NCBI RefSeq assembly: GCF_004340525.1
Contig: NZ_SLWX01000015.1
Location: 1-64,000, forward strand
DNA from: Chromatocurvus halotolerans
GTDB taxonomy: Bacteria > Pseudomonadota > Gammaproteobacteria > Pseudomonadales > Halieaceae
Length of the DNA: 64,000 nucleotides
Direction: 5' to 3'
In this document: one piece after another, positions 2,715 through 23,754 of the stretch
Layout of the letters: each line of letters opens with the position of its first letter
Position numbering within the stretch: the first letter of the stretch is position 1
Notes under the pieces: model-generated
What the model saw: the letters and a program-made list of their open reading frames with translations, nothing else
Told to the model about the DNA's origin: nothing
Databases searched by the model: none
Made by a program: the position numbers and the translations under genes

Positions 2715-3073
2715 CAGATTTCCTCCTCTATGCAAACAGGTTGTCCGTGAAAGACAGCACAGCGCCGGGCTGAAGCTGACGGGTCGTGGCTGGCAGTCGG
2801 GTCAGAATCGTCTATACAGAAGGCCTCACCCCGGTATATGGAGCACTTCGTTCTTCCGCCATTGGGAAGGTGGCCCGCCACCACTACCCCTGCCTCTGGC
2901 GTTGGGTTGTAGAAGTCGATAATGACCCTCAGGGCGTCTGGGCCGAGTAAGGCGATCCCCACTGCCGCGACCAGTTCCACCGCAATGATTGCGCTGGCGA
3001 GAATGCCGATACGACGCAGCCAGGCGATCATGCCGCGACCGCAGCGTTGCATTTGATGGGTAGATCCGTTCAT
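2714..3073 (-). CDS. Membrane protein with two Cys-pair repeats
   Basis: The 119-residue product starts at ATG 3073, preceded by GGAGGT. One transmembrane segment lies at about residues 20-45 (ILASAIIAVELVAAVGIALL). The C-terminal tail carries two copies of a short motif, KCSIYRGEAFCIDD and RCAVFHGQPVCIEE: Cys, hydrophobic, aromatic, Gly, Cys-Ile, acidic. The pattern suggests two small disulphide- or metal-stabilised hairpins, perhaps exposed in the periplasm. It is the first gene of a two-gene unit with translational coupling. The family is not recognised. Confidence 0.6.
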   Translation of the reverse strand: MNGSTHQMQRCGRGMIAWLRRIGILASAIIAVELVAAVGIALLGPDALRVIIDFYNPTPEAGVVVAGHLPNGGRTKCSIYRGEAFCIDDSDPTASHDPSASARRCAVFHGQPVCIEEEI

Positions 3074-3199
3074 GAATACCTCCGTGAGGGGTTGGAAAAG
3101 AAGGGTCTCCCGCCCGCGATAGGCATTTGCCGCGTGCAATCAACTATGCAAGATTGGCCAGGGGGGAGGATAGGGGCCCCATTGCGAGGCCCGGTGTGA

Positions 3200-4378: not shown

Positions 4379-4456
4379 GAGGATTCCTCCGTATTGCCGG
4401 GTTGGTCTAGTGATCGGCCGGGACGTGCCGGCCATGGATAGCGTGTTGGGTGTGTG

Positions 4457-6475: not shown

Positions 6476-6571
6476 GGCAGTTCTCCTGTGTTGTTGGATC
6501 ATTCGCCACACAGTTCACCAGCGCGCCTTGCACATCGGGAAAATCCCAACGGGATTCCCGAAAAAAACCTT

Positions 6572-7252
6572 CTATATCTTGTCGAGCTGCTTAAGCCCCT
6601 CTCCTATGGCACGAGATACATTGTCTGTGGATAAGCCGATTTCATACTCGTCGGATCGCAAGTGCCCAAGCCAGCTAGCCGCGATAGAGCTAAGATTCAG
6701 TTTGCCGGTCTGCTTAATGAGCCTGGGGTTGTTGGCTGCGAGATCACGAGCAGCGAGTGCGAGCATGCGCAGCAGTGTGCGGTCTCTGGCGGGCATCTGG
6801 GTGGGGTCGAGTTCTTGCGGTGGCGCGCTTTCTGCCGGTGAGTCTTCTTGCCCGAGTATTCCGTTGATCATTTTTGCTAGCGATGTGGAGGTGACTCGAG
6901 CCTGATACGGATCTTCGGGGATAGCTCCGATGAACGTGAGCACCGTCTTTTCACCGTTGCTTGCTCGATCAAGGTCGAGTGCTACCTCTTGCCAGAATTC
7001 GTGATCGAGGCGCTCGAGCTCACTACGCACGGCGTTGATGATGTCGCTCTCTGAGGCAGTCGATTCAAGAGCACCCTCGACGCTGATTGGCTCCAGCGGT
7101 TCTTTTGTGTGACCGGGTGTGGCCATCGCGATACTGTACTGCGCGTGCTGAGGTAGTAACTGTTTCAGCAGTTCCGAATTGAGTCCGCATCGCCTCAAGG
7201 CGTGGTCACGAATGAGCGCGTCCCGCCCCTCTTGCAGCGTTAATTCCAGCAT
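6572..7252 (-). CDS. Hypothetical protein of element A
   Basis: The 226-residue soluble protein starts at ATG 7252 after CGGAGATAG. It is acidic in the middle and predicted mainly helical (for example SDIINAVRSELERLDHEFWQEVALDLD). I recognise no domain and no catalytic motif. It lies 96 bp upstream of the primase-helicase gene on the same strand, so it may belong to the replication module of the element. Confidence 0.6.
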   Translation of the reverse strand: MLELTLQEGRDALIRDHALRRCGLNSELLKQLLPQHAQYSIAMATPGHTKEPLEPISVEGALESTASESDIINAVRSELERLDHEFWQEVALDLDRASNGEKTVLTFIGAIPEDPYQARVTSTSLAKMINGILGQEDSPAESAPPQELDPTQMPARDRTLLRMLALAARDLAANNPRLIKQTGKLNLSSIAASWLGHLRSDEYEIGLSTDNVSRAIGEGLKQLDKI

Positions 7253-7483
7253 TTTCTATCTCCGATCATGTAGAGCAGAAATCGTACTCAATGCGGGGCA
7301 TTAGGGGTAGCTCTAGGAGTGGCAGATCTGCAAATCTGAAGAACTGCCGAACTGCCGCCCTTATCACTTCAGATTAATATAAACAGGTATAAAAAACTGA
7401 ATGGTTAGGGGCGCCAAACCGTCGACGCCTTTGTCTTTTTCATTCACGAGTCCGGCAGATTTTCAGACTGGCAGCCCCCCTCC
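7253..7483. other. AT-rich intergenic stretch
   Basis: The 231 bp between two minus-strand genes are AT-rich around 7365-7400 (TTAATATAAACAGGTATAAA). This probably contains the promoter of the gene that starts at 7252. I cannot assign the hexamers with confidence. Confidence 0.3.
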
Positions 7484-7747
7484 TCAGGGTAAATGCCTCG
7501 CGGATACTGGCGGCGCTTCCACTTCAACTTCGCTTACCCCCAGCTCCAGCCGCCGGATTTGGAGCCATAGCATCAGGTACTCCTCGAGCAGCCCGGCCGG
7601 CCAGTCCGCGTGCTCCGAATCCAGAATGGCAATCGCCATCTCTTCGTAGCGGTCATATAGGTCTTGCGGTGAATCGGGTTCCCCCGGAAGAAGCGCAACA
7701 GCTTCCTCCAGGCGAGCGCCGACCTCCGCCAATGAGCGGATAGTCAT
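7484..7747 (-). CDS. Small acidic hypothetical protein
   Basis: The 87-residue protein starts at ATG 7747, preceded by AAGGAGGA, which makes a real gene likely. The composition is acidic and helical (LEEAVALLPGEPDSPQDL, LEEYLMLWLQIRRLELG), with no membrane segment. It belongs to the minus-strand run of small genes between radC and the integrase. The function is unknown. Confidence 0.6.
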   Translation of the reverse strand: MTIRSLAEVGARLEEAVALLPGEPDSPQDLYDRYEEMAIAILDSEHADWPAGLLEEYLMLWLQIRRLELGVSEVEVEAPPVSARHLP

Positions 7748-7810
7748 AGGGTCCTCCTTGATTAACGGTGGGTGGTTGAGTCTTTCAATGCCCAGGACGG
7801 GCAGGGAGGG

Positions 7811-7990
7811 TCAGAACTGCAGGGGGTAGTAGGGGTTATCGAATTCAGCGTTTGCGATCAGGTCCAGATCGCTAGCGGCCATAATGCGGGCCTGATCATT
7901 GACCACCTGAGCAAAATCCTCTGGATCAATTTCCCAGGCAGACACGATTTCCAGGGCTTCGGGGATGTAGGTTTCATAGTTCATAGTCAT
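7811..7990 (-). CDS. 59-residue acidic hypothetical protein
   Basis: This short gene has a GGAAGCAATG start region at 7990. The product starts MTMNYETYIPEALEI and ends FDNPYYPLQF; it is strongly acidic and soluble. Its start overlaps the stop of the upstream gene as ATGA, which indicates translational coupling, and the reading frame is closed by TGA at 7811-7813. I do not recognise the family. Confidence 0.55.
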   Translation of the reverse strand: MTMNYETYIPEALEIVSAWEIDPEDFAQVVNDQARIMAASDLDLIANAEFDNPYYPLQF

Positions 7991-8163
7991 TGCTTCCTTT
8001 CGTAGTAGCGGTAGGCGAGGTAGGACAGGCCGCCCAGGGCAGCCAGCAGAACCAGGACGGGATACATCGACATCAGCAGAGCGCTAAAGGCGACGGTGAA
8101 GAACCACAGCGATCCCGACATGAAGCCGAGGACCACGGCGGCGAACAGCAGTAGTGACAGCAT
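7987..8163 (-). CDS. Small two-helix membrane protein
   Basis: The 58-residue product starts at ATG 8163 after AAGGAAAACCC. It is almost entirely hydrophobic, with two likely transmembrane helices (SLLLFAAVVLGFMSGSLWFF and YPVLVLLAALGGLSYLAY). A short cationic end (YRYYERKQ) follows. The longer frame upstream has no ribosome-binding site. It is translationally coupled to the next gene by a 4-bp overlap. No function can be assigned. Confidence 0.55.
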   Translation of the reverse strand: MLSLLLFAAVVLGFMSGSLWFFTVAFSALLMSMYPVLVLLAALGGLSYLAYRYYERKQ

Positions 8164-8381
8164 GGGTTTTCCTTGTGTTGAGTTGAGGGTTTGCGACGTA
8201 CAGAGCGAGCACGGCGGCTCGACGGAAGGCATTGCGCCAGCCGGGTCGGTATAGGGTCGGTTTTCAGGGGGTGAGGGTTTGCCTGCGAGCTGGAGGCCTT
8301 GCGCCACCTGGGGTTATGGGTTCTTCAAAAGCCAGACCAACCGACTAGAGAGCTCTTGTTGATCGTGGGGTAAGTGACCGA

Positions 8382-8927
8382 TCACTTCTCACCGGAGGTC
8401 CCGGCTTTTGCCTTAGTCATACCGGTGCCTGCTTTACCCCTTGCCTTGGCGCGAGGCTTGGCCGGTTTGCTATGGCCAGCCTTCGATCCCTCCATGACGG
8501 ACAGGAAACCGGCGACATCACCAAGCTGGTAGTGCCGCTTTGATTCCGGGACGCGGTCCAGGACTTTCTCGGCAACCAGAGTGGCCAGGAGAAAGCTGGG
8601 GTTGTTGGCCGACCTGCCGACGAACAACTGGCGCAGGGCCATGGATGTGATCGGCTTGTCCTGTGGCCACGCCTCCAGAGCGTTCTGGATGGCCTGGAAG
8701 GGCACCCACTCATCACTGAAAAATCCGCCGCCGCTATTGCTGGCCAGGCGCCAGTGCAGGGCACCATCGGCATCAGTGCCAAGGTGGTAGCCCAGGGTGG
8801 CCTTGCCCTCCAGGGATTTACAGCTGCTCTTGCGCAACAAGGTGACGGTCGGGGTTTCGTCGGTTTTGACGGTGGGGGTTTCGGGGTTATTGGGGTTCTT
8901 TTCGGTCGTGCGAGATTGAGTTGCCAT
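8382..8927 (-). CDS. Hypothetical protein with low-complexity ends
   Basis: The 181-residue protein starts at ATG 8927 behind AGGAGGCC. The N-terminus is rich in Thr, Pro and Asn, and the C-terminus is rich in Lys, Ala and Gly (KPAKPRAKARGKAGTG). The C-terminal tail looks able to bind nucleic acid. The central part (about residues 30-140) is a compact domain containing LGYHLGTDADGALHWRL. Proteins of this general kind are common next to radC in integrative elements. I cannot name a function. Confidence 0.6.
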   Translation of the reverse strand: MATQSRTTEKNPNNPETPTVKTDETPTVTLLRKSSCKSLEGKATLGYHLGTDADGALHWRLASNSGGGFFSDEWVPFQAIQNALEAWPQDKPITSMALRQLFVGRSANNPSFLLATLVAEKVLDRVPESKRHYQLGDVAGFLSVMEGSKAGHSKPAKPRAKARGKAGTGMTKAKAGTSGEK

Positions 8928-9066
8928 AGAGGCCTCCTGATAGTTGAGGTTGTGGGTTGTGTGAGCGCGATTGTCGCGCAGGGTTGTGCTGGCAAGCCGT
9001 TACCGGTCTGCCGAGAATGATGCGATAGGTGGGAAGGCCAGACCTGGCCTGGGGGAGTCCGTCGAG

Positions 9067-9609
9067 CTACAGCAGCCCCATTTCTGCGAAGGACGTGGTG
9101 CCACCCGTCGAGACAATGACGTGATCCAGTACGCGGACATCCATGAGCTGTAACGCCCGTTGCAGGCGTTCTGTGATGCGGCGATCGGCAGCGCTGGGCT
9201 CACTGACGCCGGAGGGATGGTTGTGTACCAGGATCACCGCTGCGGCATTGAGCTCCAGGCAGCGACGGACAACGACACGGGGATACACCGCTGCGCCATC
9301 AATGGTGCCCTGGAAGAGTCGCTCGAAAGCAATGACATGGTGCTGGGCTGTCAGGAACAGGCAGGCGAACTGCTCATCAGGCTCGCGACCGAGTTGTAGC
9401 TGACAGTACTGCCGGACACGGTTTGGGGACGTCAGGGCATCGCTGCGGATCAGGCGGGATTCCAGCAGGACGAGGGCCTTGTCGATGATGCGTTGTTGCG
9501 CTGGGGTCCAGGCATCGGGTAGAAAGGTCTCTGTGGACAGACCATCAGGGTCAATCGGGTCTTCAGGGTTGTTGGGGGGTGTTGCAGCAGAGCGAGGGGT
9601 AGTATTCAT
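9067..9609 (-). CDS. radC: RadC-like JAB-domain protein
   Basis: The 180-residue protein has the JAB/MPN metalloprotease-like fold of the RadC family. It shows EQFACLFLTAQHHVI, then VVVRRCLELNAAAVILVHNHPSG, the metal-binding HNHPSG motif, and the downstream SEPSAADRRIT with the third ligand Asp. It ends TTSFAEMGLL, typical of the family. RadC proteins are frequent on integrative elements and their biochemical role is unsettled; a DNA-repair role for the chromosomal form has been questioned. The usual helix-hairpin-helix N-terminus is replaced by a short Pro/Asn-rich leader. ATG 9609 follows ACGGAGGT. Confidence 0.88.
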   Translation of the reverse strand: MNTTPRSAATPPNNPEDPIDPDGLSTETFLPDAWTPAQQRIIDKALVLLESRLIRSDALTSPNRVRQYCQLQLGREPDEQFACLFLTAQHHVIAFERLFQGTIDGAAVYPRVVVRRCLELNAAAVILVHNHPSGVSEPSAADRRITERLQRALQLMDVRVLDHVIVSTGGTTSFAEMGLL

Positions 9610-9797
9610 AGCGACCTCCGTTTAATAAACGATATGGGAATAAGAATCATTCCTATTTAGATACACACGAAACCGCTCTTTTAAATACCGCCTTGCGGGC
9701 GTGAGGCGGGAGAACCGCGGACGTAGATTCTGGTCTTAGCCACGGCCAGCGTGCCTGTGGTAAAAAAGGGCAAGTTTCGAACAGAGAGGCAGTTGCC
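9610..9797. promoter_or_regulatory. Divergent control region with an imperfect palindrome
   Basis: This AT-rich region separates radC (minus) from the gene at 9798 (plus). An inverted repeat, GGAAT at 9637-9641 and ATTCC at 9649-9653, could be an operator. The promoters themselves are not assigned. Confidence 0.3.
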
Positions 9798-10277
9798 GTG
9801 ATCGCAGAAATTGTTCATCCCGACACCGGAGAGCGCTACACCGTGGATATCCCCACGCTCACGGAGCAGCACCTTGAACGAATGAAACAGGAGTACGCCA
9901 AGGACGTGCAGATAAAGGACTACCTCGAGAGTCTGCCCGTGTCCGCTGAAATCAAGGCGCTACTCTTTCGAATAACCAAATTCACGATAACCGTGGGTAA
10001 CGCGATCATACGATTTGGTAAGCGCCTGCTTGAAATAGCGATGCTGTTGGTCAACAAGTATCCGCACGCTGGCTTGGGTGTGATTCTGGGTGCCCTTATC
10101 GCCAGCCTGATCGGCGCCATACCGCTACTGGGTCCCCCGTTGGCAGCTTTCCTGGGGCCATTGTTAATGCTCTTCGGCCTAGCGAAAGGCCTCTGGGATG
10201 ATGTAAAAGCCCAGGAACCTCGTCTCGCTGGTGACATCCTCGCCTCGGAAGAAGTCTTTCAGCCGTTGGCTGGGTGA
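9798..10277 (+). CDS. Membrane protein paired with TerB-like gene
   Basis: The 159-residue product starts at GTG 9798, preceded by GAGAGG. It has a soluble helical N-terminal half. One or two hydrophobic segments follow at about residues 92-130 (GLGVILGALIASLIGAIPLL and GPPLAAFLGPLLMLFGLA), rich in Gly and Pro. It ends 9 bp before the TerB-like gene, so the two probably form an operon. The sequence suggests an inner-membrane protein; I know no function for it. Confidence 0.6.
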   Translation: MIAEIVHPDTGERYTVDIPTLTEQHLERMKQEYAKDVQIKDYLESLPVSAEIKALLFRITKFTITVGNAIIRFGKRLLEIAMLLVNKYPHAGLGVILGALIASLIGAIPLLGPPLAAFLGPLLMLFGLAKGLWDDVKAQEPRLAGDILASEEVFQPLAG

Positions 10278-10286
10278 CCGTAGACA

Positions 10287-11114
10287 ATGACGATTGATGC
10301 TGAGCTGGAAGATTTCTTCGCCGCTGATATTCAGACCGTTGTTGCCGATTCAGATCGTTTCCGACGAAAACTAGAGATTGGTGGTGAAGCATTCGCCCTG
10401 CTCACCAGGGCCGAAAACACCAGCAGCTACGTCAACGCGCTTTCCGGTGGCGCCGGTGCTGCGGGGGCGACTTATGCCGCCTGGTGGTCGTCGCTTGGTG
10501 TGCTTGGCAAGATCGGCGCGGGGATCGGCATGGTATCTACACCCGTTGGTTGGGTGGGGGCAGCAGGCGCTGTCGGTGCTGGCACGTTCCTGTTAACACA
10601 TCGGCTGCTTAGGAAGATGCGTCAAGCAACAACCGAAGAGATACCTCGGTTTATCAATACACCACTCGACGTGCTGGGAGTAAGTATCAGCGAAATCCTC
10701 GCACCGGTTCTCTGCAAGATTGTGTTGGCTGACGGTGAAGTAGCGGACCAAGAGATTTCGCGGGTGGAATCGTATCTTTGTGATGAATGGGGATACGACG
10801 AGAAGTATGTGAAATCCCTACTGGTTTTCGACGCAAAGCATGTCGCTGACTGGGACTGGAGTCAGCTGGGCGAGGCTATTGCCGGCCTGAGGTCAACGAA
10901 AGATGTCAAAGTCTCTGGCTTTGCGAGAGAGCTGGTGCGCATAGCGGAAGATGTGGCTGAGAGCGATGGCCGTGTTACGCAGAGTGAACGTGTTCAGCTG
11001 GCCCGGTTGCGGGATGCTGTTGGAGTCGACACACCGCGTAGTCTCTGGACTCGCGTGCGTGAAGCCATTAGGCGGTGCATTCAATATATTCGAGGGTTTC
11101 TGCGGCTGGCATAG
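10287..11114 (+). CDS. TerB-like protein with membrane segment
   Basis: The 275-residue protein has a Gly/Ala-rich hydrophobic region at about residues 52-100 (ALSGGAGAAGATYAAWW, GAVGAGTFLLTH). It is followed by a TerB-like all-helical domain in which two acidic metal-binding-type motifs repeat: IVLADGEVADQEISRV and AESDGRVTQSERVQL. TerB domains occur in tellurite-resistance and in membrane stress or phage-defence contexts. Here there are no other ter genes, only the coupled small membrane protein upstream, so tellurite resistance should not be assumed. The pair may act at the inner membrane as an accessory stress or defence module. Confidence 0.7.
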   Translation: MTIDAELEDFFAADIQTVVADSDRFRRKLEIGGEAFALLTRAENTSSYVNALSGGAGAAGATYAAWWSSLGVLGKIGAGIGMVSTPVGWVGAAGAVGAGTFLLTHRLLRKMRQATTEEIPRFINTPLDVLGVSISEILAPVLCKIVLADGEVADQEISRVESYLCDEWGYDEKYVKSLLVFDAKHVADWDWSQLGEAIAGLRSTKDVKVSGFARELVRIAEDVAESDGRVTQSERVQLARLRDAVGVDTPRSLWTRVREAIRRCIQYIRGFLRLA

Positions 11115-11621
11115 GCTGCTGCGTTGCAGTCAACGATTCCGCTTCTAGCAAGAATTCTGAGATTCCGGCAAATCTTGGGCGTGCGTCCGGGCGCGGTGTG
11201 CGGGTTTGCACAAGAGCATTTATAGGCTTGGTAAATCTATGCCCACGATATAGTAGGCATGTCTTCGAGTCAGTAGCCCTCGCTCTTGTGGAAATAACGG
11301 CGACTGTCTCTGCAGTCCAGACGGTAATAGAAAACAGGTGGCATTTGGTTTTTCTACCGTGGCCTATTTACGGCAGCAATACAGCAACCACCGAATGCAG
11401 CGCTTATGAAACGCCTGTGGTCAGTTTCCGGAAGATTTTTTACAATTTCGTTTCAGCAGTGCGATGCTTTTGAGGCATCCGGTTTTCCTCAATGACGGTT
11501 CCAGAACCATCCAGGCCTACCTTGCGAGTAACGGCTTTCACGAGCCTGGCAACTCGTGAACGTGCTCTGCAGCCCCAGAACGGGTAGCCTTACATCTCAT
11601 TCTGATGTGTAGCCACGACCC
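11115..11621. other. 507-bp intergenic region, nothing recognised
   Basis: An open frame on the plus strand crosses part of this stretch, but it lacks a ribosome-binding site, and its composition (many Cys, Ser and Val, no domain) looks like chance. No RNA gene, repeat or terminator stands out. Confidence 0.4.
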
Positions 11622-11909
11622 ATGAGTGTTAACCGTACATACCCCGATCCCGATGCGATTTCAGAAGAAGAGCAAGAACACGACAGCCGGATTGGCGCGA
11701 AGATGCACCTATTCCTTGAGCGCATGATTCGCGCTGCCCGTGAGGAGGAGGGTATCGACGAAGAACGCGCGGTTGATTTGATGTTATGCACTGCCGTGCG
11801 GTTTTATGCTGAGCGGCTTCCCACAAACCCAACAGATATAGCAGTCATGTGCCGATCTATTGCCGAAGAGGTGCTCAGTGGTGCAGATGGCGGGGACAGG
11901 CTGCATTGA
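11622..11909 (+). CDS. Small acidic hypothetical protein
   Basis: The 95-residue protein starts MSVNRTYPDPDAISEEE and is rich in Glu and Arg, predicted helical, with no membrane segment. It ends two bases before the left inverted repeat of the IS3 element. Its last residues (SGADGGDRLH) may therefore be changed by the insertion. No family is recognised. Confidence 0.4.
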   Translation: MSVNRTYPDPDAISEEEQEHDSRIGAKMHLFLERMIRAAREEEGIDEERAVDLMLCTAVRFYAERLPTNPTDIAVMCRSIAEEVLSGADGGDRLH

Positions 11910-11972
11910 TTGGGTTCTACCCCGCTTTTACGGACACTTCAAAGAAGCCCATAATGGGCAAAAGGAGTGTTT

Positions 11973-12260
11973 ATGTCCAAGCGAAGAAAGTATAGCCCCG
12001 AGTTCAAGCGCGGCGCCGTTGAACAGACGCGGCAACCGGGCGTCAGCTGCGCCCAGGTTGCCCGGGAACTGGGAATTGGCGGCAATGTCCTGACCCGCTG
12101 GGTCCGTGAAGCAGACTCCGCAGGCCGGCAAGTATTCGGCGGTACCGGAACTCCCAGGGATGAAGAAGTCGCCCAGCTCAAGCGGGAACTCTCACGGGTA
12201 GAGAAGGAACGCGATTTTTTGCGCGAAGCGGCAACGTTCTTTGCAAAGGAGTCGTCCTGA
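11973..12260 (+). CDS. IS3-family transposase OrfA
   Basis: The 95-residue protein starts at ATG 11973 behind AAGGAG. It has the IS3 OrfA helix-turn-helix ([12 protein letters not shown], then [19 protein letters not shown]) that binds the IS ends. A leucine-zipper-like C-terminus ([19 protein letters not shown]) mediates dimerisation. A run of six T at 12215-12220 lies where a -1 ribosomal shift would fuse OrfA to OrfB, and the OrfB frame is open from there. Confidence 0.9.
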
Positions 12261-12304
12261 AGTATCAGGCGATTCAACGTTGTCGCAGCGAGTTTCCTCT
12301 AAGC

Positions 12305-13129
12305 ATGATGTGTCGATGCCTCAAGGTATCACCGAGTGGTTACTATGATTGGGAATCACGGTTACCCAGTGACCGGCAGTCGGACAATGCGCGCTTGATG
12401 TCGCGTATTCGCCAGATCCACGAGGATAGCCAGGGTGCGATCGGCGTGCCGCGCATGCACGACGACCTTACGCATGAAGGAGAAACAGCGAGCAGGAACC
12501 GCATCGCTCGCCTGATGGCGTCTGAAGGGCTTCAGGGTTGGCCACGACGAAAGAAGCGCGGCCAGAGGGCAAAGCCGGCGCTGTCGCCGCCGGGGATCGA
12601 GAATCGGCTGAATCGTGACTTCAGTGCGCTGGAGCCTGAAACCAAGTGGGTGACTGACATTACGGAGATCCCTACGGGCGAGGGCAAACGGTTTCTATGC
12701 GTCGTCATTGATCTGTTCAACAAACTGGTGGTCGGTTGGTCAATGCACCACCGGCAGGATCGACAAATGGTAATACGCGCGGTCGAGATGGCCGTGTGGC
12801 AACGCCAGGACAAGGGCTCTGTCGTTCTACATTCGGACAGGGGCAGTCAATTTCGAAGCGGTGATTACCAGCGGTTCCTGAAACAGAACGCGTTAATCAG
12901 TTCCATGAGCGCAGTCGGTCACTGCGGCGACAACGCGGCCTGTGAAGGTTTCTTCGGCGTGCTCAAGCGTGAGCGTGTAAACCGGAAAAAATATCGCACA
13001 CGGGATATCGCCAGGTCTGATGTGTTCGACTACATTGAGCGTTTTCACAATCCGCGAAAGCGGCGAAGAGTGGCCAAGCTCGATCTTGAGTACTCAGCCG
13101 TTTTAGAAACGTCCGTAGAAGCGGGGTAG
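12305..13129 (+). CDS. IS3-family transposase OrfB (DDE integrase)
   Basis: The catalytic part of the transposase. The DDE residues are visible: [13 protein letters not shown] (first Asp), [11 protein letters not shown] (second Asp) and [14 protein letters not shown] (Glu). An HTH_21-like region precedes them ([16 protein letters not shown]). The frame is open upstream to 12215. The native product is therefore probably an OrfAB fusion made by -1 frameshifting; ATG 12305 is simply the first Met in frame. No stop or frameshift damages the gene, so the IS may be active. Confidence 0.9.
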
Positions 13130-13134
13130 AACCC

Positions 13135-13404
13135 GTTTCTCGCTGCAGCTTGCCCAAGGCGCCGTGAACGAGCTGATACGCGCGCTGACGCGATACTCCC
13201 ACCTCAGCACATGCGGTCGAAGGTTTTACCCTCCATGCGCAGTTCCATGGCTTGCGTGCGTCGCTCGTGATAATAATTTGAGCAGGTCTCTGTTCGCCTG
13301 GCCAGCGAGGCTAAAAGCGATGGATCCTTGGTGTTGACTTGCGCAATCTTTTTTACATCGCCAAAAACCCCGTAGCTAGCCAGGCTATTCCAACCATAGC
13401 GCAA
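13135..13404 (-). pseudogene. Degenerate HTH DNA-binding gene next to the IS
   Basis: Read on the minus strand, a frame with RRTQAMELRMEGKTFDRM is followed, after a one-base frame change, by EVGVSRQRAYQLVHGALGKL. Together these form a helix-turn-helix similar to sigma-region-4-like or terminase-small-subunit-like DNA-binding proteins. The frame is closed by TGA at the frameshift, and the continuation is cut off by the IS end at 13134. I take it as the remains of a small regulatory gene. Confidence 0.45.
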
Positions 13405-13410
13405 ACAGTG

Positions 13411-14256
13411 TCAACGACGCTCGCGCGCTATACTTGTTCCGACCAAACCCAACAGCAGTAAAGCTAAGGTGCCGGGCGTTGGCACAGTTGAAAAGAGCGC
13501 TGCTTGAGAAAAAACAACGTCGGTACCTTTACCCTTACCGCTGGCATTCACTACAAACTTCGAAACGTCACCGAATTCTGGGGAGACGAAACCTGTGATA
13601 CTAGACGTGTCAATTCGAAGCAGCGCGTCATAGTTCACAAGAAACTGCAGGCTGCTGTAGCGCCGGTCAAGTGCGTCGCTTGTATCACCAGACACTACAG
13701 CAAAACTGCGCAAGGCAGGGGTAAACGTTTGGCCCTGAGGAGCAAACTGGCCCGACGAGCGCGTCGAGGCACCTATTGATCCCGGTCCGCCGCCAGAAGT
13801 ACTAGCACTGCCATCATTGCCGTCAAGCGTCGAGGCCGGAGTCCAATTGCCTGTACCACCGAAATCGAGTTTAAAAAAAGCGGTCGTCAGTTCCTGTGTG
13901 TCCGGGGAGGCATCATTGATGCCTAAACCTATGATTCGGTCGCCAGTCATCCAACTGCCAGTCACAAGGGTTCCAGTGTCGCTTCCTCGGACGTCATCCG
14001 TCGAATTGGCATTGAAACTGTCGCTCGCTGACAAAACAAAGGTAGTGAAATAGGTGTCGAAGTCTGTCGGTTCGCTACCATTGGCTAAGCGTGAAAAAAT
14101 GACATTTTCAGAGTCGCGCGAGTTGCCAATCAGAGTCCAACCATCAGCGGCAGAGTCGCCGGTTAGTATGGCCGCTCCTAAAGCGCTGCCCGCGTAAGCT
14201 ACGGTGGCCATAGCACAAAATATAGGAATTAAAGGTCGTATTGAGAATTTCATCAT
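13411..14256 (-). CDS. PEP-CTERM sorted exported protein
   Basis: The 281-residue protein starts with a signal peptide (FSIRPLIPIFCAMATVAYAG, likely cleavage after SALGA). It ends in a PEP-CTERM-type sorting signal: the variant motif VPTPGTLALLLLGLVG followed by the cationic end ARERR. In known systems such proteins are processed by exosortase and linked to exopolysaccharide production. The body is Ser/Thr/Gly/Asp-rich with no catalytic motif, as is usual for the family. No exosortase is present in the window. The gene stands alone on element A and may depend on chromosomal export machinery. Confidence 0.75.
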   Translation of the reverse strand: MMKFSIRPLIPIFCAMATVAYAGSALGAAILTGDSAADGWTLIGNSRDSENVIFSRLANGSEPTDFDTYFTTFVLSASDSFNANSTDDVRGSDTGTLVTGSWMTGDRIIGLGINDASPDTQELTTAFFKLDFGGTGNWTPASTLDGNDGSASTSGGGPGSIGASTRSSGQFAPQGQTFTPALRSFAVVSGDTSDALDRRYSSLQFLVNYDALLRIDTSSITGFVSPEFGDVSKFVVNASGKGKGTDVVFSQAALFSTVPTPGTLALLLLGLVGTSIARERR

Positions 14257-14770
14257 TTAGCTTTGCTCCTAGCTTTGCTCTGAAATTAAGTTGCTACCTT
14301 CTGAGTTATCCACGTATAAATTACGTGGGCAGCCTAGATGCAGAGTTCATGCCGAAACCCATAAAGGTAAGGAAAACCAATGTGATAAAAATTTCGTGTA
14401 CATTAGTTTCGTGGTGTTTCTTACATCGTGTAAAAAATCTAGACACTTAATTCAAGACAGTCAGATTGATCATTGATCTGGTTTTGCGGGGATTGTTCGT
14501 AATGGATCCACAAACCCCGCCCTTCCTTGAATAAGGCTATCGGCGGGCTCGTGGCACCTAAACCTGGAACTGCCGATATCAGACCCAAGGAATGAACGAT
14601 TCGTTAGCATGGCGGAGGCGGAGGCGGAGGCGGATCGTGCCGTTTACGCTGATGGAAAGTTTATGCGAGCGATGTTCTGGAAGTTGTGGGCGTTGGTCTT
14701 TGCTGGACCCGTACTTCTCGGGGTTGAGTCCAGCGCTCAGACAAGCTACCGCCGTAGCACAGACGAATAC
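14257..14770. other. Regulatory and noncoding stretch upstream of the PEP-CTERM gene
   Basis: A direct repeat TAGCTTTGCTC occurs twice at about 14257-14281. A perfect hairpin, CCACGTA at 14310-14316 and TACGTGG at 14322-14328, lies in AT-rich DNA upstream of the PEP-CTERM start and could be part of its control region. Around 14611-14633 GGAGGC-type units repeat. A frame running from there into the ISL3 remnant is a chance fusion. No gene is supported. Confidence 0.35.
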
Positions 14771-15103
14771 GTTAAGTGGGTAGAACCGCTACATGCCAGC
14801 CCGCTTCACGCGCTGGCAAAGACACTGACATCCTGGCTGGAGCCCATCGCCGCTATGTGGCGTTTCTCGAAGAGCAATGGAGTCACTGAGGGTTACCATA
14901 CCAAGATGGAAATGATGACCAGGAGGGCATACGGATTCAGGAATTTCGAGAACTATCGACTGAGGGTGTTAACCCATTGTGGATGGGATGGCATCATCAA
15001 CCGGGTTTAGTGAAAACCGGTGCATCCCCCGTTAAGTGGGTAGAGCCCATTATTAACCGCGTTTAATGAAAACCGGTGCATCCCCCGTTAAGTGGGTAGA
15101 GCC
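14771..15103 (+). mobile_element. ISL3-type remnant with duplicated IS end
   Basis: An IS-end fragment (GTTAAGTGGGTAGAACC) is joined directly to the C-terminal coding part of the ISL3 transposase (HALAKTLTSWLEPIAAMW to RNFENYRLRV). This shows a large internal deletion. After the stop the IS end occurs twice in tandem (about 14995-15049 and 15050-15103). The coding part is nearly identical to 134-565. The element is dead, but it marks the right end of element A. Confidence 0.75.
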
Positions 15104-15112
15104 TCAAAAAGA

Positions 15113-15159
15113 TGGTGGGCCCAGTAGGACTTGAACCTACGACCAATCGATTATGAGTC
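15113..15159 (-). repeat. att copy 2: tRNA 3'-end duplicate between elements A and B
   Basis: These 47 bp are identical to 23678-23724, the 3' portion of the tRNA gene. They form the junction of two tandem integrations, the right end of element A and the left end of element B. The integrase gene of element B begins 150 bp to the right. Confidence 0.92.
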
Positions 15160-15309: not shown

Positions 15310-16644
15310 GTGACGCACTCGACCCGGTTTCGGTTTACCAAGGCAGCCATTGATCGATGGCCAACACCTGACAAGCGCACCCGGATTCGGGACGAGGCAC
15401 TCCCCGGACTGATCCTGGAGCTGTCCCCTTCAGGCACTCGGACATTCCGCGTATACAAGAAGCGCAAGGGCGACACGACGGCGATCAGCGTCACGCTGGG
15501 CCGATATCCGGGCATGACTATCGAGCAAGCGCGCAAGGCCGCAATCGAAGCCCTAAAGGAGCTCAACAGCGGCGCAAACCCTAACGAGGAGGCTCGAGTC
15601 CGGCGGAAGGCGCGAATCACGCTCAGAGAGGTGTACGCGGATTACGCGAACTGCAAGGGGCTAAAGGAGAGTACCCGCCGGGGCTACGACACAAACGTTC
15701 GCACCTATCTCAATGAATTCGCGGATCGCCCGCTGTCGGCGTTGGATGAATCGGCAGTGAAGCGTCTGCACCAATCGATCAGCCGGCGCAGCCCCGCCCA
15801 GGCGGATCTGGTGATGCGCTTCGCGCGGGCGCTTTTTAACTTCGCCAAGTACGAATATCGCGGTCCCAATGGGCGCTTCTTGTTCGAGCACAACCCCATC
15901 GCGATCCTTAATCACCAGAAGCTCTGGAACCGGGTACCGAGGCGCAACACCTGCCTGACTCGCGGGCAGTTGCCAGGCTGGTTTGATGCCCTGGACGCAT
16001 TGCGTGGCCTTGGGCCTTATCAATGCGCAGTGTGCGATCTCGCGGAGGTGGCGCTGCTCACCGGCTTGCGTCGGAGCGAGTTGATGGAACTCACCTGGGC
16101 GCAAGTGAATCTCGACGAGGGCCGCTTTTTTATCAGTCGCACGAAAAATGGCGAACCGCTCGAGCTTCCGATCACGACGCACTTGGACGCAATCTTAAGA
16201 CGGCGCCGTGACGCCTCGTTCGACCACCTTGGCTTCGTGTTCAATGCTCCGAATGCGCTTGGAAGGCTCCAAGACCCGCGTAAGGCGCTATCGAAGATAG
16301 CCGAACACGCTGGCGTCGGCTTTACCCTGCATGACTTGCGTCGCACGTTCACGACGACCGCCGAGAGTCTTAACGTGGGTACCTACACCATCAAACGATT
16401 GCTGAATCATCGGACGCGGCGCGATGACGTAACCGCCGGCTACTTGGTCTTGACGCCGGAAGAACTGCGGCAGCCGGCCCAGCGCATCGCTGACGCCATC
16501 ATGACCCACGCAGGGCGCTTTGATGCCGCAAGCGGTGGCATGGATGCCGCCTTGGAGGCGCTCGTTGCGGGGCTGTCCGAGGCGGATAAGCGGCGCCTGA
16601 TCTTTGACCTTTCGGCGCAGCAACGTGTCAGTGAGGCCCTGTGA
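15310..16644 (+). CDS. Tyrosine-type site-specific integrase (element B)
   Basis: The 444-residue recombinase starts at GTG 15310, with no strong ribosome-binding site. The N-terminus is a DUF4102-like arm-binding domain (LPGLILELSPSGTRTFRVY, VTLGRYPGMTIEQARK). The catalytic residues are visible in LLTGLRRSELMELTW (Arg), FTLHDLRRTFTTTAE (His-x-x-Arg), LLNHRTRRDDVTAGYLVL (second His position and Tyr). This is the arrangement of P4-family integrases that target tRNA genes, and it lies next to an att copy. It presumably excises and inserts the 8.6-kb element B. Confidence 0.93.
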   Translation: MTHSTRFRFTKAAIDRWPTPDKRTRIRDEALPGLILELSPSGTRTFRVYKKRKGDTTAISVTLGRYPGMTIEQARKAAIEALKELNSGANPNEEARVRRKARITLREVYADYANCKGLKESTRRGYDTNVRTYLNEFADRPLSALDESAVKRLHQSISRRSPAQADLVMRFARALFNFAKYEYRGPNGRFLFEHNPIAILNHQKLWNRVPRRNTCLTRGQLPGWFDALDALRGLGPYQCAVCDLAEVALLTGLRRSELMELTWAQVNLDEGRFFISRTKNGEPLELPITTHLDAILRRRRDASFDHLGFVFNAPNALGRLQDPRKALSKIAEHAGVGFTLHDLRRTFTTTAESLNVGTYTIKRLLNHRTRRDDVTAGYLVLTPEELRQPAQRIADAIMTHAGRFDAASGGMDAALEALVAGLSEADKRRLIFDLSAQQRVSEAL

Positions 16645-19910: not shown

Positions 19911-21011
19911 TTATCTTTGACGCGAGCGCGAAACCTGAAACGTGACGGCCCGCGAATCCCAATCGGCAATATCCCAGGGATTGAAAAGTTCGAGCTTGCC
20001 CCCCGCCGCCGCTGGCGGTGAGACCGATTTATCGAGCTCTATGTTACTTACCAGGGCGAGAGCGGTTTTGCCGGCTTGCTCGGTGTGCAACGCGACTTCG
20101 TTGGCGGTCATCAATACTGCGTCCAGGAGTGCGCTGGTCGTTCCCTTGACCTCGACTTTGATCGCGACGCCGTCGCGTTCCGCCAGGAAGTCATAGGGCT
20201 TGCTAGCCGATGTGTCCTCCACGGCATACCCTTCAAGCTCAAGCTGGCGCTTGGCAACCGCCATTGCGCACAGCTCGACTGCACGCCTCTCGTCGCCGGT
20301 AAGCGCGAATCCCTGGCGGTTGGCTGCCGTCTGGCGGGTTGGGTTCGTAATCGCCTCTATAGCGCTTAAATCGATTTCTCGGGCGTTCAAGTTGCGCCCG
20401 CGATCAACGGACGCGTATATGATCGCGAGCAGCCCCAGCGCCTCCGCTATGGCGTCGAGAAACGCCTGCTCGTCTAGGTTCTCGGGGTCAAACGCCCGAG
20501 CCAGCGCCGTAGCGCGTTCAAAAGACTTCGGCAGTGCGGCGGTCGCACCTAGCTCTATTTGGTCCGGGAAGCCGGAAACATCGGCGCCGGCTTCCTCCAA
20601 TTCTTGAAGCATCCATAAGATGCGGGCATCGAGTTCTTCGCCGGATGTTGTCCGAAGGTCTCCGCGCTCCGCATCCCAGGTCGAAGAGCTGCACCCCAGG
20701 GTGACGTATACGCGCCGACCATCCCGAGAAAAATGAATAACGACGTAGTAGCCATCGGTCGCGTTCGGCGAGCGCTCTCGGCAATGGAAGCGCACCCAGG
20801 GAGCTTCTGTTTTGCGCCCTATGCCGTCTTTACCGTGCACAGCTAGGGTGGCAGCGAACTGCCCCATTCGCGCTGTGAGGGCCGGCCAGGCGCTCCTGAA
20901 AAGGTTAGGCAAAGTTTGGCGAATTAATTCCCCTCGTTGCTTCATCGCGGGGGTGTTTTCGCTGGTGTACTCGCGTTGCAAGTTTGCTATCCGAGCAATT
21001 TCACTTTTCAT
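19911..21011 (-). CDS. DUF3578 (MrcB-like) / DUF3883 protein, likely restriction-type nuclease
   Basis: The 366-residue protein has two recognisable parts. Residues about 60-150 (APWVRFHCRERSPNATDGYY, VVIHFSRDGRRVYVTLGCSS) match the MrcB/DUF3578 N-terminal domain found in McrB-like, modification-dependent restriction proteins. Residues about 245-320 (VELCAMAVAKRQLELEGYAV, KPYDFLAERDG, IKVEVKGTTS) match DUF3883, a PD-(D/E)xK-like nuclease fold in which Asp and the Glu-x-Lys of VEVKG are the expected catalytic residues. The combination points to DNA recognition plus cleavage, so antiphage defence is the most likely role. There is no AAA motor next to it. Confidence 0.75.
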   Translation of the reverse strand: MKSEIARIANLQREYTSENTPAMKQRGELIRQTLPNLFRSAWPALTARMGQFAATLAVHGKDGIGRKTEAPWVRFHCRERSPNATDGYYVVIHFSRDGRRVYVTLGCSSSTWDAERGDLRTTSGEELDARILWMLQELEEAGADVSGFPDQIELGATAALPKSFERATALARAFDPENLDEQAFLDAIAEALGLLAIIYASVDRGRNLNAREIDLSAIEAITNPTRQTAANRQGFALTGDERRAVELCAMAVAKRQLELEGYAVEDTSASKPYDFLAERDGVAIKVEVKGTTSALLDAVLMTANEVALHTEQAGKTALALVSNIELDKSVSPPAAAGGKLELFNPWDIADWDSRAVTFQVSRSRQR

Positions 21012-21160
21012 TGTTTCATCCGTGCTGGTCTTGATTCGGGATAGTTCGCGGCATTTACTTCCGGGCCTGATTCCTTAGCGACTAACTACATTACATCAAG
21101 CCGTATAGTTGCTAGCATCTCCGTGCAAAGCCTTCCCGCCCCTCACAAAAGAGATTGGGT
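21012..21160. promoter_or_regulatory. Divergent promoter region of the defence genes
   Basis: The 149 bp separate the DUF3578/DUF3883 gene (minus) from the DUF4145 gene (plus) and must carry both promoters. The hexamers cannot be assigned reliably. Confidence 0.3.
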
Positions 21161-21739
21161 ATGTCGAAATATCAGGGTGTTCCATGGGCCAACGCGTCCA
21201 ATCTCGGTTCAAAAGGTTATCGTTGCGGCTACTGCGGAATCAATGTTGCCTCAAGCCTGGGGTTCGTCGCTGCCGACTCGATCGAGGGGCGCTATGCCGA
21301 AATTCGCCTTTGCTCTCATTGCGCCAAGCCGACATTTTTCCACGGGCAGAGCAGATGCCCTGACGTAGCTCCCGGGAATGAGGTCGACCACGTTCCAGAT
21401 GGGGTGTACGCGTTATACCAGGAGGCGAGGAATGCCGCAGCCGCTAACGCCTACACGGCCTCCGTGCTCGCGAGCCGGAAGTTGCTGATGAACATTGCGG
21501 TCTCGCAAGGAGCCCCCGAAAAACTTCGGTTCATCGAATATGTAGATTTTCTTGCGGATGGGGGCTTTATTCCTCCAAACGGAAGGGGCTGGGTTGACCA
21601 CATTAGAACCAAGGGAAATGAAGCCACCCACGAAATTGTCTTAATGGAACGTGAGGGTGCTGCAGAACTCATTTCCTTTTCGGAAATGCTACTTAAGTTT
21701 ATTTTTGAATTCCCGGCAAGAGTGCCGATTGAACAATAA
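21161..21739 (+). CDS. DUF4145-domain protein
   Basis: The 192-residue protein begins with a zinc-ribbon-like part (GYRCGYCGINVAS, then LCSHCAKPTFF: four Cys in two pairs). A DUF4145 helical domain follows (NAYTASVLASRKLLMNIAV, WVDHIRTKGNEATHEI, FSEMLLKFIFEFP). DUF4145 proteins occur often in defence islands and in restriction systems, and the fold is related to HEPN. The conserved RTKGNEATHE includes the Arg and His spaced as in that family. I chose ATG 21161; TTG 21155 is also in frame. Its neighbours make a defence role likely. Confidence 0.75.
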   Translation: MSKYQGVPWANASNLGSKGYRCGYCGINVASSLGFVAADSIEGRYAEIRLCSHCAKPTFFHGQSRCPDVAPGNEVDHVPDGVYALYQEARNAAAANAYTASVLASRKLLMNIAVSQGAPEKLRFIEYVDFLADGGFIPPNGRGWVDHIRTKGNEATHEIVLMEREGAAELISFSEMLLKFIFEFPARVPIEQ

Positions 21740-21979
21740 AACGCCAACGCGGCCGGTTGTAGGAGAATAACCTACAGTTTGCTGAGTAGCTCTGTTGAGG
21801 CGCGGTCAGGCGCTCGGACTCGGAATTGAATGGGCGTTCTCGCACTAGATTGCTGACCCAAAGATAGACTACTCAGAAAGGGATGCTGATGAAATCGAGG
21901 TTTTCAAAACCTCGTAAGATAAACGCAGCGAGATCCTGATCAATTACGCGAAAACCACGAGAATCTCCAGCACTCGAAA
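21740..21979. other. Leader region between DUF4145 gene and DRT2 ncRNA
   Basis: No gene. A 6-bp stem (TGTAGG 21758-21763 with CCTACA 21771-21776) and a perfect stem (CGAGGTTTT 21896-21904 with AAAACCTCG 21906-21914) could end transcription from the DUF4145 gene. The promoter of the ncRNA should lie in this stretch, but I cannot assign its hexamers. Confidence 0.4.
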
Positions 21980-22033
21980 AGTATGCTACCATACTTAGGC
22001 CTGGCGGCTCGGGCGCTAGGGAATGTCACAGAA

Positions 22034-22136
22034 TGTCAAGCCATTCCAGGCAGCCTTCACGGCAGCCTGTCATGATTGACGCGAGCATTGCGACGGTAAT
22101 CCGCATGGATACCTCCTTTGTGATATAGACATTATA
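22034..22136 (-). promoter_or_regulatory. Split promoter completed only in concatemeric cDNA
   Basis: On the minus strand TTGACA (22039-22034) and TATAAT (22136-22131) are both perfect consensus, but in the genome the -10 comes before the -35. In head-to-tail repeats the spacer is 3 nt (22033-22031) plus 14 nt (22150-22137), exactly 17 bp, the optimum. Transcription would start near 22124, about 20 nt before the ATG. Confidence 0.75.
22104..22119 (-). promoter_or_regulatory. Shine-Dalgarno and start codon of the latent gene
   Basis: On the minus strand AAAGGAGGT (22119-22111) is followed after four bases by ATG (22106-22104). This is close to the ideal ribosome-binding arrangement and lies just downstream of the junction promoter. 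Confidence 0.75.
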
Positions 22137-22213
22137 TATCATTGCTAACAGAAGCGGCGCGGCCCCGAGTTATGCTCTGGGTGGGATGGTGAGAGAAAGT
22201 CCACTTGGTTAAG

Positions 22214-22260
22214 CCGGAGAGGGGTTTGGATCGCCGCAGTCCTTTACCCTCTCCGGTTTT
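22214..22260 (+). terminator. Hairpin with T run at the 3' end of the ncRNA
   Basis: A perfect 10-bp G+C-rich stem (22214-22223 with 22247-22256) and a 23-nt loop are followed by TTTT. It lies 15-18 bp before the RT start. It may terminate or process the ncRNA, let some transcription through to the RT, and serve as an RT-binding stem. Confidence 0.6.
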
Positions 22261-22274
22261 GCTAAGAGGAAAAG

Positions 22275-23552
22275 ATGGCAACAGACGACTTCAGCTGGTA
22301 TCGCCATCGTAACTATCTGCACTTCGATAACCCGTTAGGTAAAAAATCGGCAGAAGCGCTTGTTAAAAATCCGCTAAGAGTTAAATCTCATTCTTTCTAC
22401 CCCCTGATTTCCTACGAAATTGAGTCAATCAAGATCGCCAAGGATGCGGCATCAGGTAGTATTGAAAAGAAAAAGAAGCCGCGGCCTATCCGTTATGCTG
22501 CCCACGCAGACAGTCATATATATAGCTTCTACTCAACAATCCTTTCGCAAAAATACGAAGATCTACTTAGAGACAAAGCGCTATCAGAGCATGTTCTGGC
22601 GTTCAGGCCGCTGGGAAAAAATAATATAGATTTTGCGGCCGAAGCATTCGAAGACATACGAGTCATGGGGACTTGTGCTGCAGTAGCTCTCGATATCACC
22701 GGATTTTTCGACAATATAGATCACGCTATTCTTAAAGATGCGTGGTGCGATTTGTTGGGCGAAGCTCGGCTGCCGGGCGACCACTTCGCAATCTTCAAGT
22801 CCCTTACCGCTTACTCTTATGTCCCCAAGCTTGCGCTTTATCGCCAGTTGGGAATATCGCAACATAACCCAAAAAATAACCGGAAAAGAGTTTGCGAGCC
22901 GCGGATATTTCGCGAAATAGTGCGAGGTGGGAACCTCATTACAACTAATGAGAATGCTTATGGAATTCCGCAGGGCTCACCGATCAGTGCGCTGCTTTCG
23001 AATATTTATATGGTTGAATTTGATGAAGAGGCGTCCAAACTCGCGCGCTCTATAAACGGAAAGTATTATCGGTATTGCGATGACATTTTGTTCATTGTTC
23101 CAATTGACCAAAAGGACCGCATAGCAAACAAAGCGAAGACCATGATCAGAGGTCTCAAGTTAGAAATAAATAAAAAGAAAATAGCGGTTAGAAGCTTTAC
23201 TCAGCGCGGGAATATCCAAAGAGCCGATTACCCCCTTCAATACCTTGGGTTCACATTTGATGGCGAGCGGATACTTATACGCTCGGCGGCGCTAGCTCGA
23301 TATTCTGACAAAATGAAACGGGGGGTTAAATTCGCCAAAGCCACGATGCGGAAAAGGAACGGCCTAAGGGTTTTACGGGGGGAGCCGGTAAAGCCTCTTT
23401 ATCGCAAAAGTTTGTATCGACTTTACTCCCACGTCGGAAGGCGAAATTTTCTTAGCTACGGGTATAGAGCCGCAAGAAGGATGAACTCCCCTGCGATAAA
23501 GCGTCAACTTAAACCCTTATGGCGTAGGCTGGAAGAGGAAATTGAAAGGTAA
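22275..23552 (+). CDS. drt2: DRT2-type antiviral reverse transcriptase
   Basis: The 425-residue protein is a single RT domain with thumb and nothing fused. Motifs in order: YLHFDNP near residue 14, KPRPIRYAAHADSHIY near 68-83, motif A ALDITGFFDNIDH at 138-150, motif B GIPQGSPISALLSNIY at 230-245, catalytic YCDD at 267-270, and LQYLGFTFDG at 321-330. Length, motifs and the ncRNA upstream fit the defence-associated RT group DRT2 (UG2), not retrons or group II introns, which have other partners. ATG 22275 follows AAGAGGAAAAG. The gene is richer in A+T than its neighbours, which suggests transfer. In DRT2 the RT makes concatemeric cDNA from its ncRNA during phage infection. Confidence 0.88.
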   Translation: MATDDFSWYRHRNYLHFDNPLGKKSAEALVKNPLRVKSHSFYPLISYEIESIKIAKDAASGSIEKKKKPRPIRYAAHADSHIYSFYSTILSQKYEDLLRDKALSEHVLAFRPLGKNNIDFAAEAFEDIRVMGTCAAVALDITGFFDNIDHAILKDAWCDLLGEARLPGDHFAIFKSLTAYSYVPKLALYRQLGISQHNPKNNRKRVCEPRIFREIVRGGNLITTNENAYGIPQGSPISALLSNIYMVEFDEEASKLARSINGKYYRYCDDILFIVPIDQKDRIANKAKTMIRGLKLEINKKKIAVRSFTQRGNIQRADYPLQYLGFTFDGERILIRSAALARYSDKMKRGVKFAKATMRKRNGLRVLRGEPVKPLYRKSLYRLYSHVGRRNFLSYGYRAARRMNSPAIKRQLKPLWRRLEEEIER

Positions 23553-23677: not shown

Positions 23678-23754
23678 TGGTGGGCCCAGTAGGACTTGAA
23701 CCTACGACCAATCGATTATGAGTCGACTGCTCTGACCAACTGAGCTATGGGCCC
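23678..23754 (-). tRNA. tRNA with anticodon CAT (Ile2 or elongator Met), integration site
   Basis: The minus strand reads GGGCCCATAGCTCAGTTGG at the 5' end (23754 downward). The D arm, an anticodon loop CTCATAA (anticodon CAT at 23720-23718), a T arm with GGTTCAAGTCC and an encoded CCA at the 3' end follow. The acceptor stem GGGCCCA pairs with TGGGCCC. With CAT the gene may be the lysidine-modified isoleucine tRNA or elongator methionine; sequence alone does not settle this. Its 3' end is the target used by at least two elements, and the gene is kept intact by the element's own copy. Confidence 0.93.

What the first reader, a model, noticed from the sequence alone, without database searches (positions are those of the whole stretch)
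22031..22150. Hidden never-ending gene (neo) in the DRT2 template
Two ACAGAA motifs lie exactly 120 nt apart (22028, 22148). Joined head to tail, the minus-strand unit has one frame of 40 codons with no stop, closing on itself because 120 is divisible by three. The other minus frames and all plus frames have stops. No linear gene finder would report it, since the gene exists only after the RT makes concatemers. A stop-free 40-codon run has a fair chance alone; the accompanying start signals and promoter make it convincing. Known DRT2 systems make such a Neo protein; this locus appears to be a further variant with its own 40-residue repeat.
Basis: partly seen in the sequence, partly recalled or inferred. 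Interest (0 to 1): 0.96.

Follow-up and report, generated by a model that had tools for sequence, protein, structure and literature searches.

The report
Canonical DRT2 locus with neo gene
This is a bacterial anti-phage system of the known DRT2 kind, whose reverse transcriptase is expected to copy a 120-base RNA template over and over into a stop-less gene; it is a good new example of something described in 2024, not a new kind of system.

Summary
ACAGAA occurs at 22028 and 22148, 120 nt apart, just upstream of an intact DRT2 reverse transcriptase (22275-23552). Joined head to tail, the minus strand has one stop-free frame of 40 codons; the other five frames have stops. Openness alone proves little (36% of simulated units have an open frame). 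Other signals decide: the junction forms a perfect TTGACA-17 bp-TATAAT promoter; AAAGGAGG and an ATG lead into the open frame; 0 of 20,000 simulated sequences meet the whole rule. Fourteen of 14 close units, window included, keep this frame open at 99-132 nt, all divisible by three; the other minus frames are open in none. A fifteenth, L090, does not fit. These are published features of DRT2/neo, so this is a new member of a known kind, on an 8.6-kb integrative element. Amino-acid-level selection on Neo was not detected. A possibly new side result: in divergent DRT2s other short repeats (GUUU, GUU, GAAG) replace ACA while the 17-bp junction promoter and endless frame persist, in 15 of 31 loci against 17 of 6200 simulated. 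Nothing was tested in cells.

The parts
22275..23552 (+). DRT2 reverse transcriptase, 425 aa, YCDD at residues 267-270
   Evidence: PADLOC Drt2 PDLC02173 E=7.6e-196; Pfam RVT_1 E=4e-16; YCDD invariant in the alignment of 8 RTs
22028..22147 (-). neo repeat unit: template on the + strand ncRNA, Neo coded on the minus strand; 120 nt, 40 codons, no stop when concatenated
22028..22030 (+). ACA-1 (end of the template, expected to be copied as TGT)
   Evidence: sequence; invariant in the alignment of 14 ncRNAs, L090 not included
22148..22150 (+). ACA-2 (expected re-annealing site for the TGT cDNA end)
   Evidence: sequence; ACA, AUA or GCA in the 13 other units that fit
22034..22039 (-). -35 box TTGACA, upstream of the -10 only after concatenation
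22131..22136 (-). -10 box TATAAT, 17 bp from the -35 across the repeat junction
22112..22119 (-). Shine-Dalgarno AAAGGAGG
22104..22106 (-). ATG start codon of neo, unit position 42
   Evidence: the same unit position in 13 of 14 units, window included (L004: 33)
22146..22265 (+). 3' scaffold of the ncRNA (Rfam RF03016, RT-12), directly after the template
   Evidence: 69.6 bits against a gathering score of 44.2
22000..22020 (+). 5' hairpin of the ncRNA just before ACA-1 (7 pairs)
   Evidence: RNAalifold on 14 sequences; 6 of the 7 pairs have at least one sequence with both sides changed
15113..15159 (+). 47-nt copy of the tRNA-Met 3' end: likely left att site of the element carrying DRT2
23678..23724 (+). 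the same 47 nt inside the intact tRNA-Met gene (23678-23754, minus): likely right att site
15310..16644 (+). tyrosine integrase of the element
   Evidence: Pfam Phage_integrase and Arm-DNA-bind_3

Best explanation
This is a DRT2 anti-phage system. The ncRNA (about 21985-22265; ends inferred) is bound by the RT. The RT copies 22147 down to 22028 into cDNA ending in TGT, moves that end from ACA-1 to ACA-2 and repeats, giving 120-nt tandem repeats. Once double-stranded, each junction forms a TTGACA-17-TATAAT promoter; transcription and translation from the ATG give a Neo protein of 40-residue repeats (MRITVAMLASIMTGCREGCLEWLDILLAMIYNVYITKEVS) that would arrest the infected cell. Shown here: the sequence features and their conservation. 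Inferred from the published Klebsiella system: the RT reaction, the phage trigger, transcription, translation and toxicity.
For: DRT2 profile match over the whole RT. RT-12 RNA between template and RT. Unit, single open frame, perfect junction promoter, Shine-Dalgarno and ATG in frame. 14 of 14 units (window plus 13 relatives) open in the same minus frame, 0 of 14 in the other two minus frames, plus frames 1, 1 and 8 of 14 (L090 left out of this count). Lengths 99, 111, 117, 120 and 132 nt, all divisible by three; Shine-Dalgarno with a start at unit position 42 in 13 of 14. Neo frame hydrophobic: GRAVY +0.84 in the window, positive in 14 of 14 (in several relatives another frame is positive too). 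0 of 20,000 simulated sequences meet the rule. ncRNA helices with changes on both sides in 25 of 33 pairs. The published mechanism has these same features (PMC12039810: passages and discussion read; PMC11100668: passages and one section read).
Against: No purifying selection on Neo residues was detected: window against L002 has 2 synonymous and 13 non-synonymous codon changes, neo-frame conservation P=0.09 against reshuffled changes, and plus frame 1 scores higher than the neo frame. No consensus sigma-70 promoter was found for the ncRNA itself. L090 (46% RT identity) does not fit: its ACU/ACU unit is 145 nt and the corresponding frame has stops. Nothing was tested in cells.
Confidence: 0.93

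Rival explanations
1. The open frame is chance: the RT makes cDNA from this ncRNA, but no protein is made and the cDNA acts by itself.
For: Stop-free circular frames are common in this GC-rich DNA (36% simulated, 82% of real pieces), and no amino-acid-level selection was seen.
Against: Frame, start, promoter spacing and length modulo three are kept together in 14 of 14 units while 0 of 14 are open in the other two minus frames (L090 left out); 0 of 20,000 simulated sequences meet the full rule.
Confidence: 0.03
2. The locus is intact by sequence but silent or inactive in this host, for example because the ncRNA is not expressed.
For: No consensus promoter in 21700-22300. Two relatives carry a damaged RT: L003 has one in-frame stop and L025 has many stops in the frame read.
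Against: The window RT is full length with YCDD, and the ncRNA and neo signals are intact. A weak ncRNA promoter would be missed by the scan.
Confidence: 0.1
3. The template lies elsewhere, with another unit length.
For: One further ACA lies inside the template at 22129.
Against: That ACA gives 101 nt, not divisible by three, with a poor junction promoter. The alignment places ACA-1 and ACA-2 at conserved positions.
Confidence: 0.02

Closest known systems
Klebsiella pneumoniae DRT2 (KpnDRT2), PMC12039810 and PMC11100668
   Same: RT with upstream ncRNA, 120-nt template, ACA-1/ACA-2, TTGACA and TATAAT 17 bp apart across the junction, single endless frame, hydrophobic Neo (passages read)
   Different: Host (a Halieaceae relative, inferred) and presumably the Neo sequence, which was not compared letter by letter; no experiment has been done on this one
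Parahaliea mediterranea DRT2 (L002; the same stretch as L083)
   Same: RT 70% identical; 120-nt unit, same frame, same start position, same promoter
   Different: ACA-2 is AUA, which still pairs with the TGT cDNA end if a G-U wobble is allowed
Rfam RF03016 RT-12 RNA
   Same: Matches 22146-22265 at 69.6 bits, model positions 1-117 of 117
   Different: The model begins next to ACA-2, so it covers the scaffold and not the template or neo

Membership tests
DRT2 (UG2 reverse transcriptase defence system) | RT of the Drt2 family over its full length | tested here: met
   PDLC02173, 649 bits, residues 3-424 of 425
DRT2 (UG2 reverse transcriptase defence system) | YCDD catalytic motif | tested here: met
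   Residues 267-270, invariant in the 8 aligned RTs
DRT2 (UG2 reverse transcriptase defence system) | Structured ncRNA directly upstream of the RT | tested here: met
   RF03016 at 22146-22265; consensus fold of 14 sequences
DRT2 neo gene | Template flanked by two ACA motifs | tested here: met
   22028-22030 and 22148-22150
DRT2 neo gene | Unit length divisible by three, one frame without stops across the junction | tested here: met
   120 nt, minus frame 2 only
DRT2 neo gene | -35 and -10 boxes that form a promoter only at the repeat junction | tested here: met
   TTGACA-17-TATAAT
[quoted passage not shown]
   AAAGGAGG, ATG at unit position 42
DRT2 neo gene | Concatemeric cDNA made on phage infection | not testable with these tools
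   Needs cells, phage and sequencing
DRT2 neo gene | Neo protein made and growth-arresting | not testable with these tools
   Needs expression and mass spectrometry

The most novel reading that the evidence does not exclude
Beyond this window: the DRT2 jump motif is not fixed as ACA. Short repeats of other sequence at the two template ends can serve, and lineages have swapped them: GUUU in Bacilli, GUU and GAAG in Alphaproteobacteria, perhaps AGG in Sphingomonadales and Rhodobacterales, and others in a Clostridioides phage and a Ruminococcus locus. In the loci that fit (AGG apart), the two arms add up so that -35 and -10 come together at 17 bp, the length stays divisible by three and neo stays endless. 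Many divergent DRT2s, in which the preprint found Neo hard to annotate, would then use the same mechanism. Within the ACA clade, AUA and GCA at ACA-2 would be kept because dG:rU and dT:rG wobbles still pair with TGT.
Probability: 0.65. Interest if true: 0.55.

Novelty: new member of a known kind. Interest (0 to 1): 0.4.

Why it matters
It adds a Halieaceae-type member (whether the published homologue tables already hold it was not checked) to the genes that exist only after reverse transcription, and one more natural Neo sequence for asking what Neo does. The comparison made for it suggests how to find neo in DRT2 clades where annotation was difficult: look for any short repeat that brings TTGACA and TATAAT to 17 bp, rather than for ACA. 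That makes the template-jump model testable by natural variation.

Tried and rejected
Search for the window's DRT2 in E. coli genomes by DNA: no match; E. coli relatives were reached through the Photobacterium locus (3 of 5426 genomes, two distinct loci used). RF03016 in 398 genomes of the phylum: only the window's own genome, with the stricter filters that the tool uses for many genomes. RT in 369 genomes of the class and 140 of the family: 2 each, the own genome counted. Viral contigs with the window RT alone: 4 weak relatives; with the RT alignment: the seven useful ones, L099-L105; with the Bacilli and the Sphingomonadales/Rhodobacterales RT alignments: none. Plasmids with the Bacillus RT at E 1e-60: none.

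Amino-acid selection on Neo: tested, not found. Finite Neo proteins in L090 (145 nt, 99 aa) and L008 (152 nt, 48 aa) were considered and not claimed: for L090 another motif (UUGA, 144 nt, 16-bp spacer) gives an endless frame, though from a TTG with a weaker Shine-Dalgarno. A structure prediction of Neo was not run: a junction-crossing repeat is not a linear product of the window, and the two papers report low-confidence models or an alpha-solenoid-like model.

Rows dropped before counts: L083 (same stretch as L002), L001 and L088 (own genome), L105 (no upstream DNA), L094 (too little upstream DNA), L018 and L022 (upstream short or N-terminus missing), L027-L081, L084-L087 and L106-L178 (other RTs or partial matches, upstream not examined), plasmid hits H10 and H14 (near-duplicates, not fetched). 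L090 was left out of the 14 and included. The 31 divergent loci were picked by hand as relatives with most of the RT and some upstream DNA; they are not independent (L009 and L010 RTs are 93% identical, L017 and L019 96%).

Full report
What was checked. ACAGAA lies at 22028 and 22148, 120 nt apart. The circular unit has one stop-free minus frame; the other five frames have stops. The open frame alone is not evidence: 36% of 20,000 Markov units and 15,059 of 18,252 overlapping real 120-nt pieces of the window have at least one open frame on a strand.

What it is. The gene at 22275-23552 is a full-length Drt2 RT with YCDD. Between it and the template lies Rfam RT-12 (22146-22265). On the minus strand, concatenation puts TTGACA (22034-22039) 17 bp from TATAAT (22131-22136), followed by AAAGGAGG and an ATG that opens the endless frame. 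The Neo repeat read from that ATG is MRITVAMLASIMTGCREGCLEWLDILLAMIYNVYITKEVS; among the window's minus frames only this one is hydrophobic (GRAVY +0.84 against -0.28 and -0.82). Of 20,000 Markov-simulated upstream regions, none meets the full rule with a perfect promoter.

Relatives. Fourteen further close DRT2 loci were compared (RT about 46-70% identical): Parahaliea, Alishewanella, an unnamed gammaproteobacterium, a Planctomycetales bin, Photobacterium, Nitratidesulfovibrio (L090), two E. coli, and six viral contigs. Thirteen of these 14, and the window, have a unit divisible by three (99-132 nt), the same minus frame open, and a Shine-Dalgarno with a start codon leading into it. The two other minus frames are open in none of these 14 units; the plus frames in 1, 1 and 8. 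Seven of the 13 relatives (L097-L103) form one close group, so they are not independent. The exception is L090, whose ACU/ACU unit is 145 nt and whose corresponding frame has stops. ACA-2 is AUA in Parahaliea and Photobacterium and GCA in L104; both still pair with the TGT cDNA end if wobbles are allowed. The consensus fold of 14 ncRNAs has 33 pairs, of which 25 have at least one sequence with both sides changed.

Against. Between the window and L002 there are 2 synonymous and 13 non-synonymous codon changes, and the neo frame is not significantly better conserved than a reshuffled control (P=0.09; plus frame 1 scores higher). This agrees with the statement in PMC12039810 that most conserved Neo residues can be put down to promoter and ACA conservation (passage read). 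So the case rests on openness, signals and length, not on residue conservation. No consensus promoter for the ncRNA itself was found.

How it works. Taken from the Klebsiella system (PMC12039810: passages and discussion; PMC11100668: passages and one section): template jumping between the ACA motifs, second-strand synthesis, transcription from the junction promoter, and a growth-arresting Neo. Every step beyond the sequence features is inferred for this locus.

Surroundings. A 47-nt piece of the tRNA-Met gene (23678-23724) recurs at 15113, and 45 nt of it at 647. With the integrase at 15310-16644 this marks an 8.6-kb integrative element carrying DRT2, in tandem with a second stretch from 647 to 15112 that has an integrase-like gene at 3200-4435 (recognised by eye, not by a profile search). 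The only other DRT2 found in 140 genomes of the window's family lies on a contig of the same length, with the same upstream sequence, as that of Parahaliea mediterranea, a Halieaceae species. In the genome tallies the RT occurs in 2 of 140 genomes of the family and 2 of 369 drawn from the class, the own genome counted each time.

Side result. One fixed rule (17-bp spacer, at most two promoter mismatches, a 3-nt repeat at the template ends, length divisible by three, Shine-Dalgarno and start into an endless frame) is met by 13 of 15 close loci, the window included, and by 15 of 31 divergent ones, against 6 of 3000 and 17 of 6200 Markov-simulated sequences. The two close misses are L002 (AUA at ACA-2) and L090. 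Of the 15 divergent hits, 7 have a perfect promoter (L007, L009, L010, L013, L020, L025, L184), 2 have one mismatch (L096, L182) and 6 have two (L012, L014, L017, L019, L093, L179); in L012, L014 and L093 the unit is doubtful. In Bacilli (L007, L009, L010, L013, L025) the shared repeat is GUUU, with units of 147, 147, 147, 138 and 147 nt and arms of 6+7, 5+8, 5+8, 6+7 and 5+8 nt (counted by hand) that with the motif give the 17-bp spacer found. In L017, L019, L096 and L179 the repeat can be read as GUU with 129 nt (in L017 and L019 ACA gives the same unit); in Azospirillum L182 as GAAG with 132 nt. Nine loci were first read after the idea was formed; 5 of these 9 meet the rule (L020, L025, L179, L182, L184) and 4 do not (L026, L180, L181, L183). 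Three loci (L005, L006, L095) share AGG, have units of 108, 120 and 96 nt and an open frame, but lack the 17-bp spacing, and in L095 no Shine-Dalgarno-led start was found. All 16 divergent misses are these three, L008, six Lachnospiraceae-type loci (L011, L015, L016, L021, L023, L024), both Calothrix loci (L091, L092), L026, L180, L181 and L183, so the rule does not cover the family. The motif names were given after seeing the sequences; the null has the same freedom. PMC11100668 says that Neo annotation was harder in divergent clades and suggests alternative mechanisms. In this library, a search for DRT2 with template jumping and homologs listed only the two papers already used, and one for DRT2 with GUUU listed none; NAR paper PMC12596737 was seen in passages only and none of those described swapped motifs. 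The final journal version of PMC11100668 was not seen.

Verdict. A canonical DRT2/neo locus: confirmed, well supported by comparison, and a new member of a known kind.

Noticed in passing
window 647-691, 15113-15159, 23678-23724: Three copies of the tRNA-Met 3' end suggest two tandem integrative elements (about 14.5 kb and 8.6 kb); the second carries DRT2.
   Followed up: partly
L007, L009, L010, L013, L025: Bacilli DRT2 loci have GUUU in place of ACA at both template ends, units of 147 or 138 nt, a perfect 17-bp junction promoter and an endless frame.
   Followed up: partly
L184 and L020, upstream of the RT: A Clostridioides phage and a Ruminococcus bin also meet the 17-bp rule with a perfect promoter, with units of 132 and 138 nt and yet other end repeats.
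   Followed up: no
L005, L006, L095: DRT2 with AGG at both template ends, units of 108, 120 and 96 nt with an open frame, but -35/-10 spacing near 11 bp; an extended -10 (TGn) may replace the -35.
   Followed up: partly
L002, L089, L104 (ACA-2 position): ACA-2 is AUA or GCA while ACA-1 stays ACA; pairing with the TGT cDNA end is kept through a wobble.
   Followed up: partly
L090 and L008, upstream of the RT: Units of 145 and 152 nt are not divisible by three; a junction-crossing ORF with a Shine-Dalgarno would end after 99 and 48 residues. Either the motif was assigned wrongly or these make a finite Neo.
   Followed up: partly
L096 1683-1817 and L179 486-614, minus strand: Hypothetical proteins AYD04577.1 and WSG77506.1 are the single-pass linear piece of neo, so some neo fragments are already in databases as orphan small proteins.
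   Followed up: yes
L025, about 2650-4000: The Robertmurraya RT shows many stops in the frame read (frameshifts not separated) while its neo template unit is open and intact.
   Followed up: no
window 21155-21739: DUF4145 protein with a weak PD-T7-4 defence match (E=3e-05) just upstream of the ncRNA.
   Followed up: no
window 19911-21011, minus strand: MrcB_N plus NOV_C protein, possibly restriction-like, on the same element.
   Followed up: no
window 1547-2278, minus strand: HNH-type protein with a weak match to a type IV restriction model on the neighbouring element.
   Followed up: no
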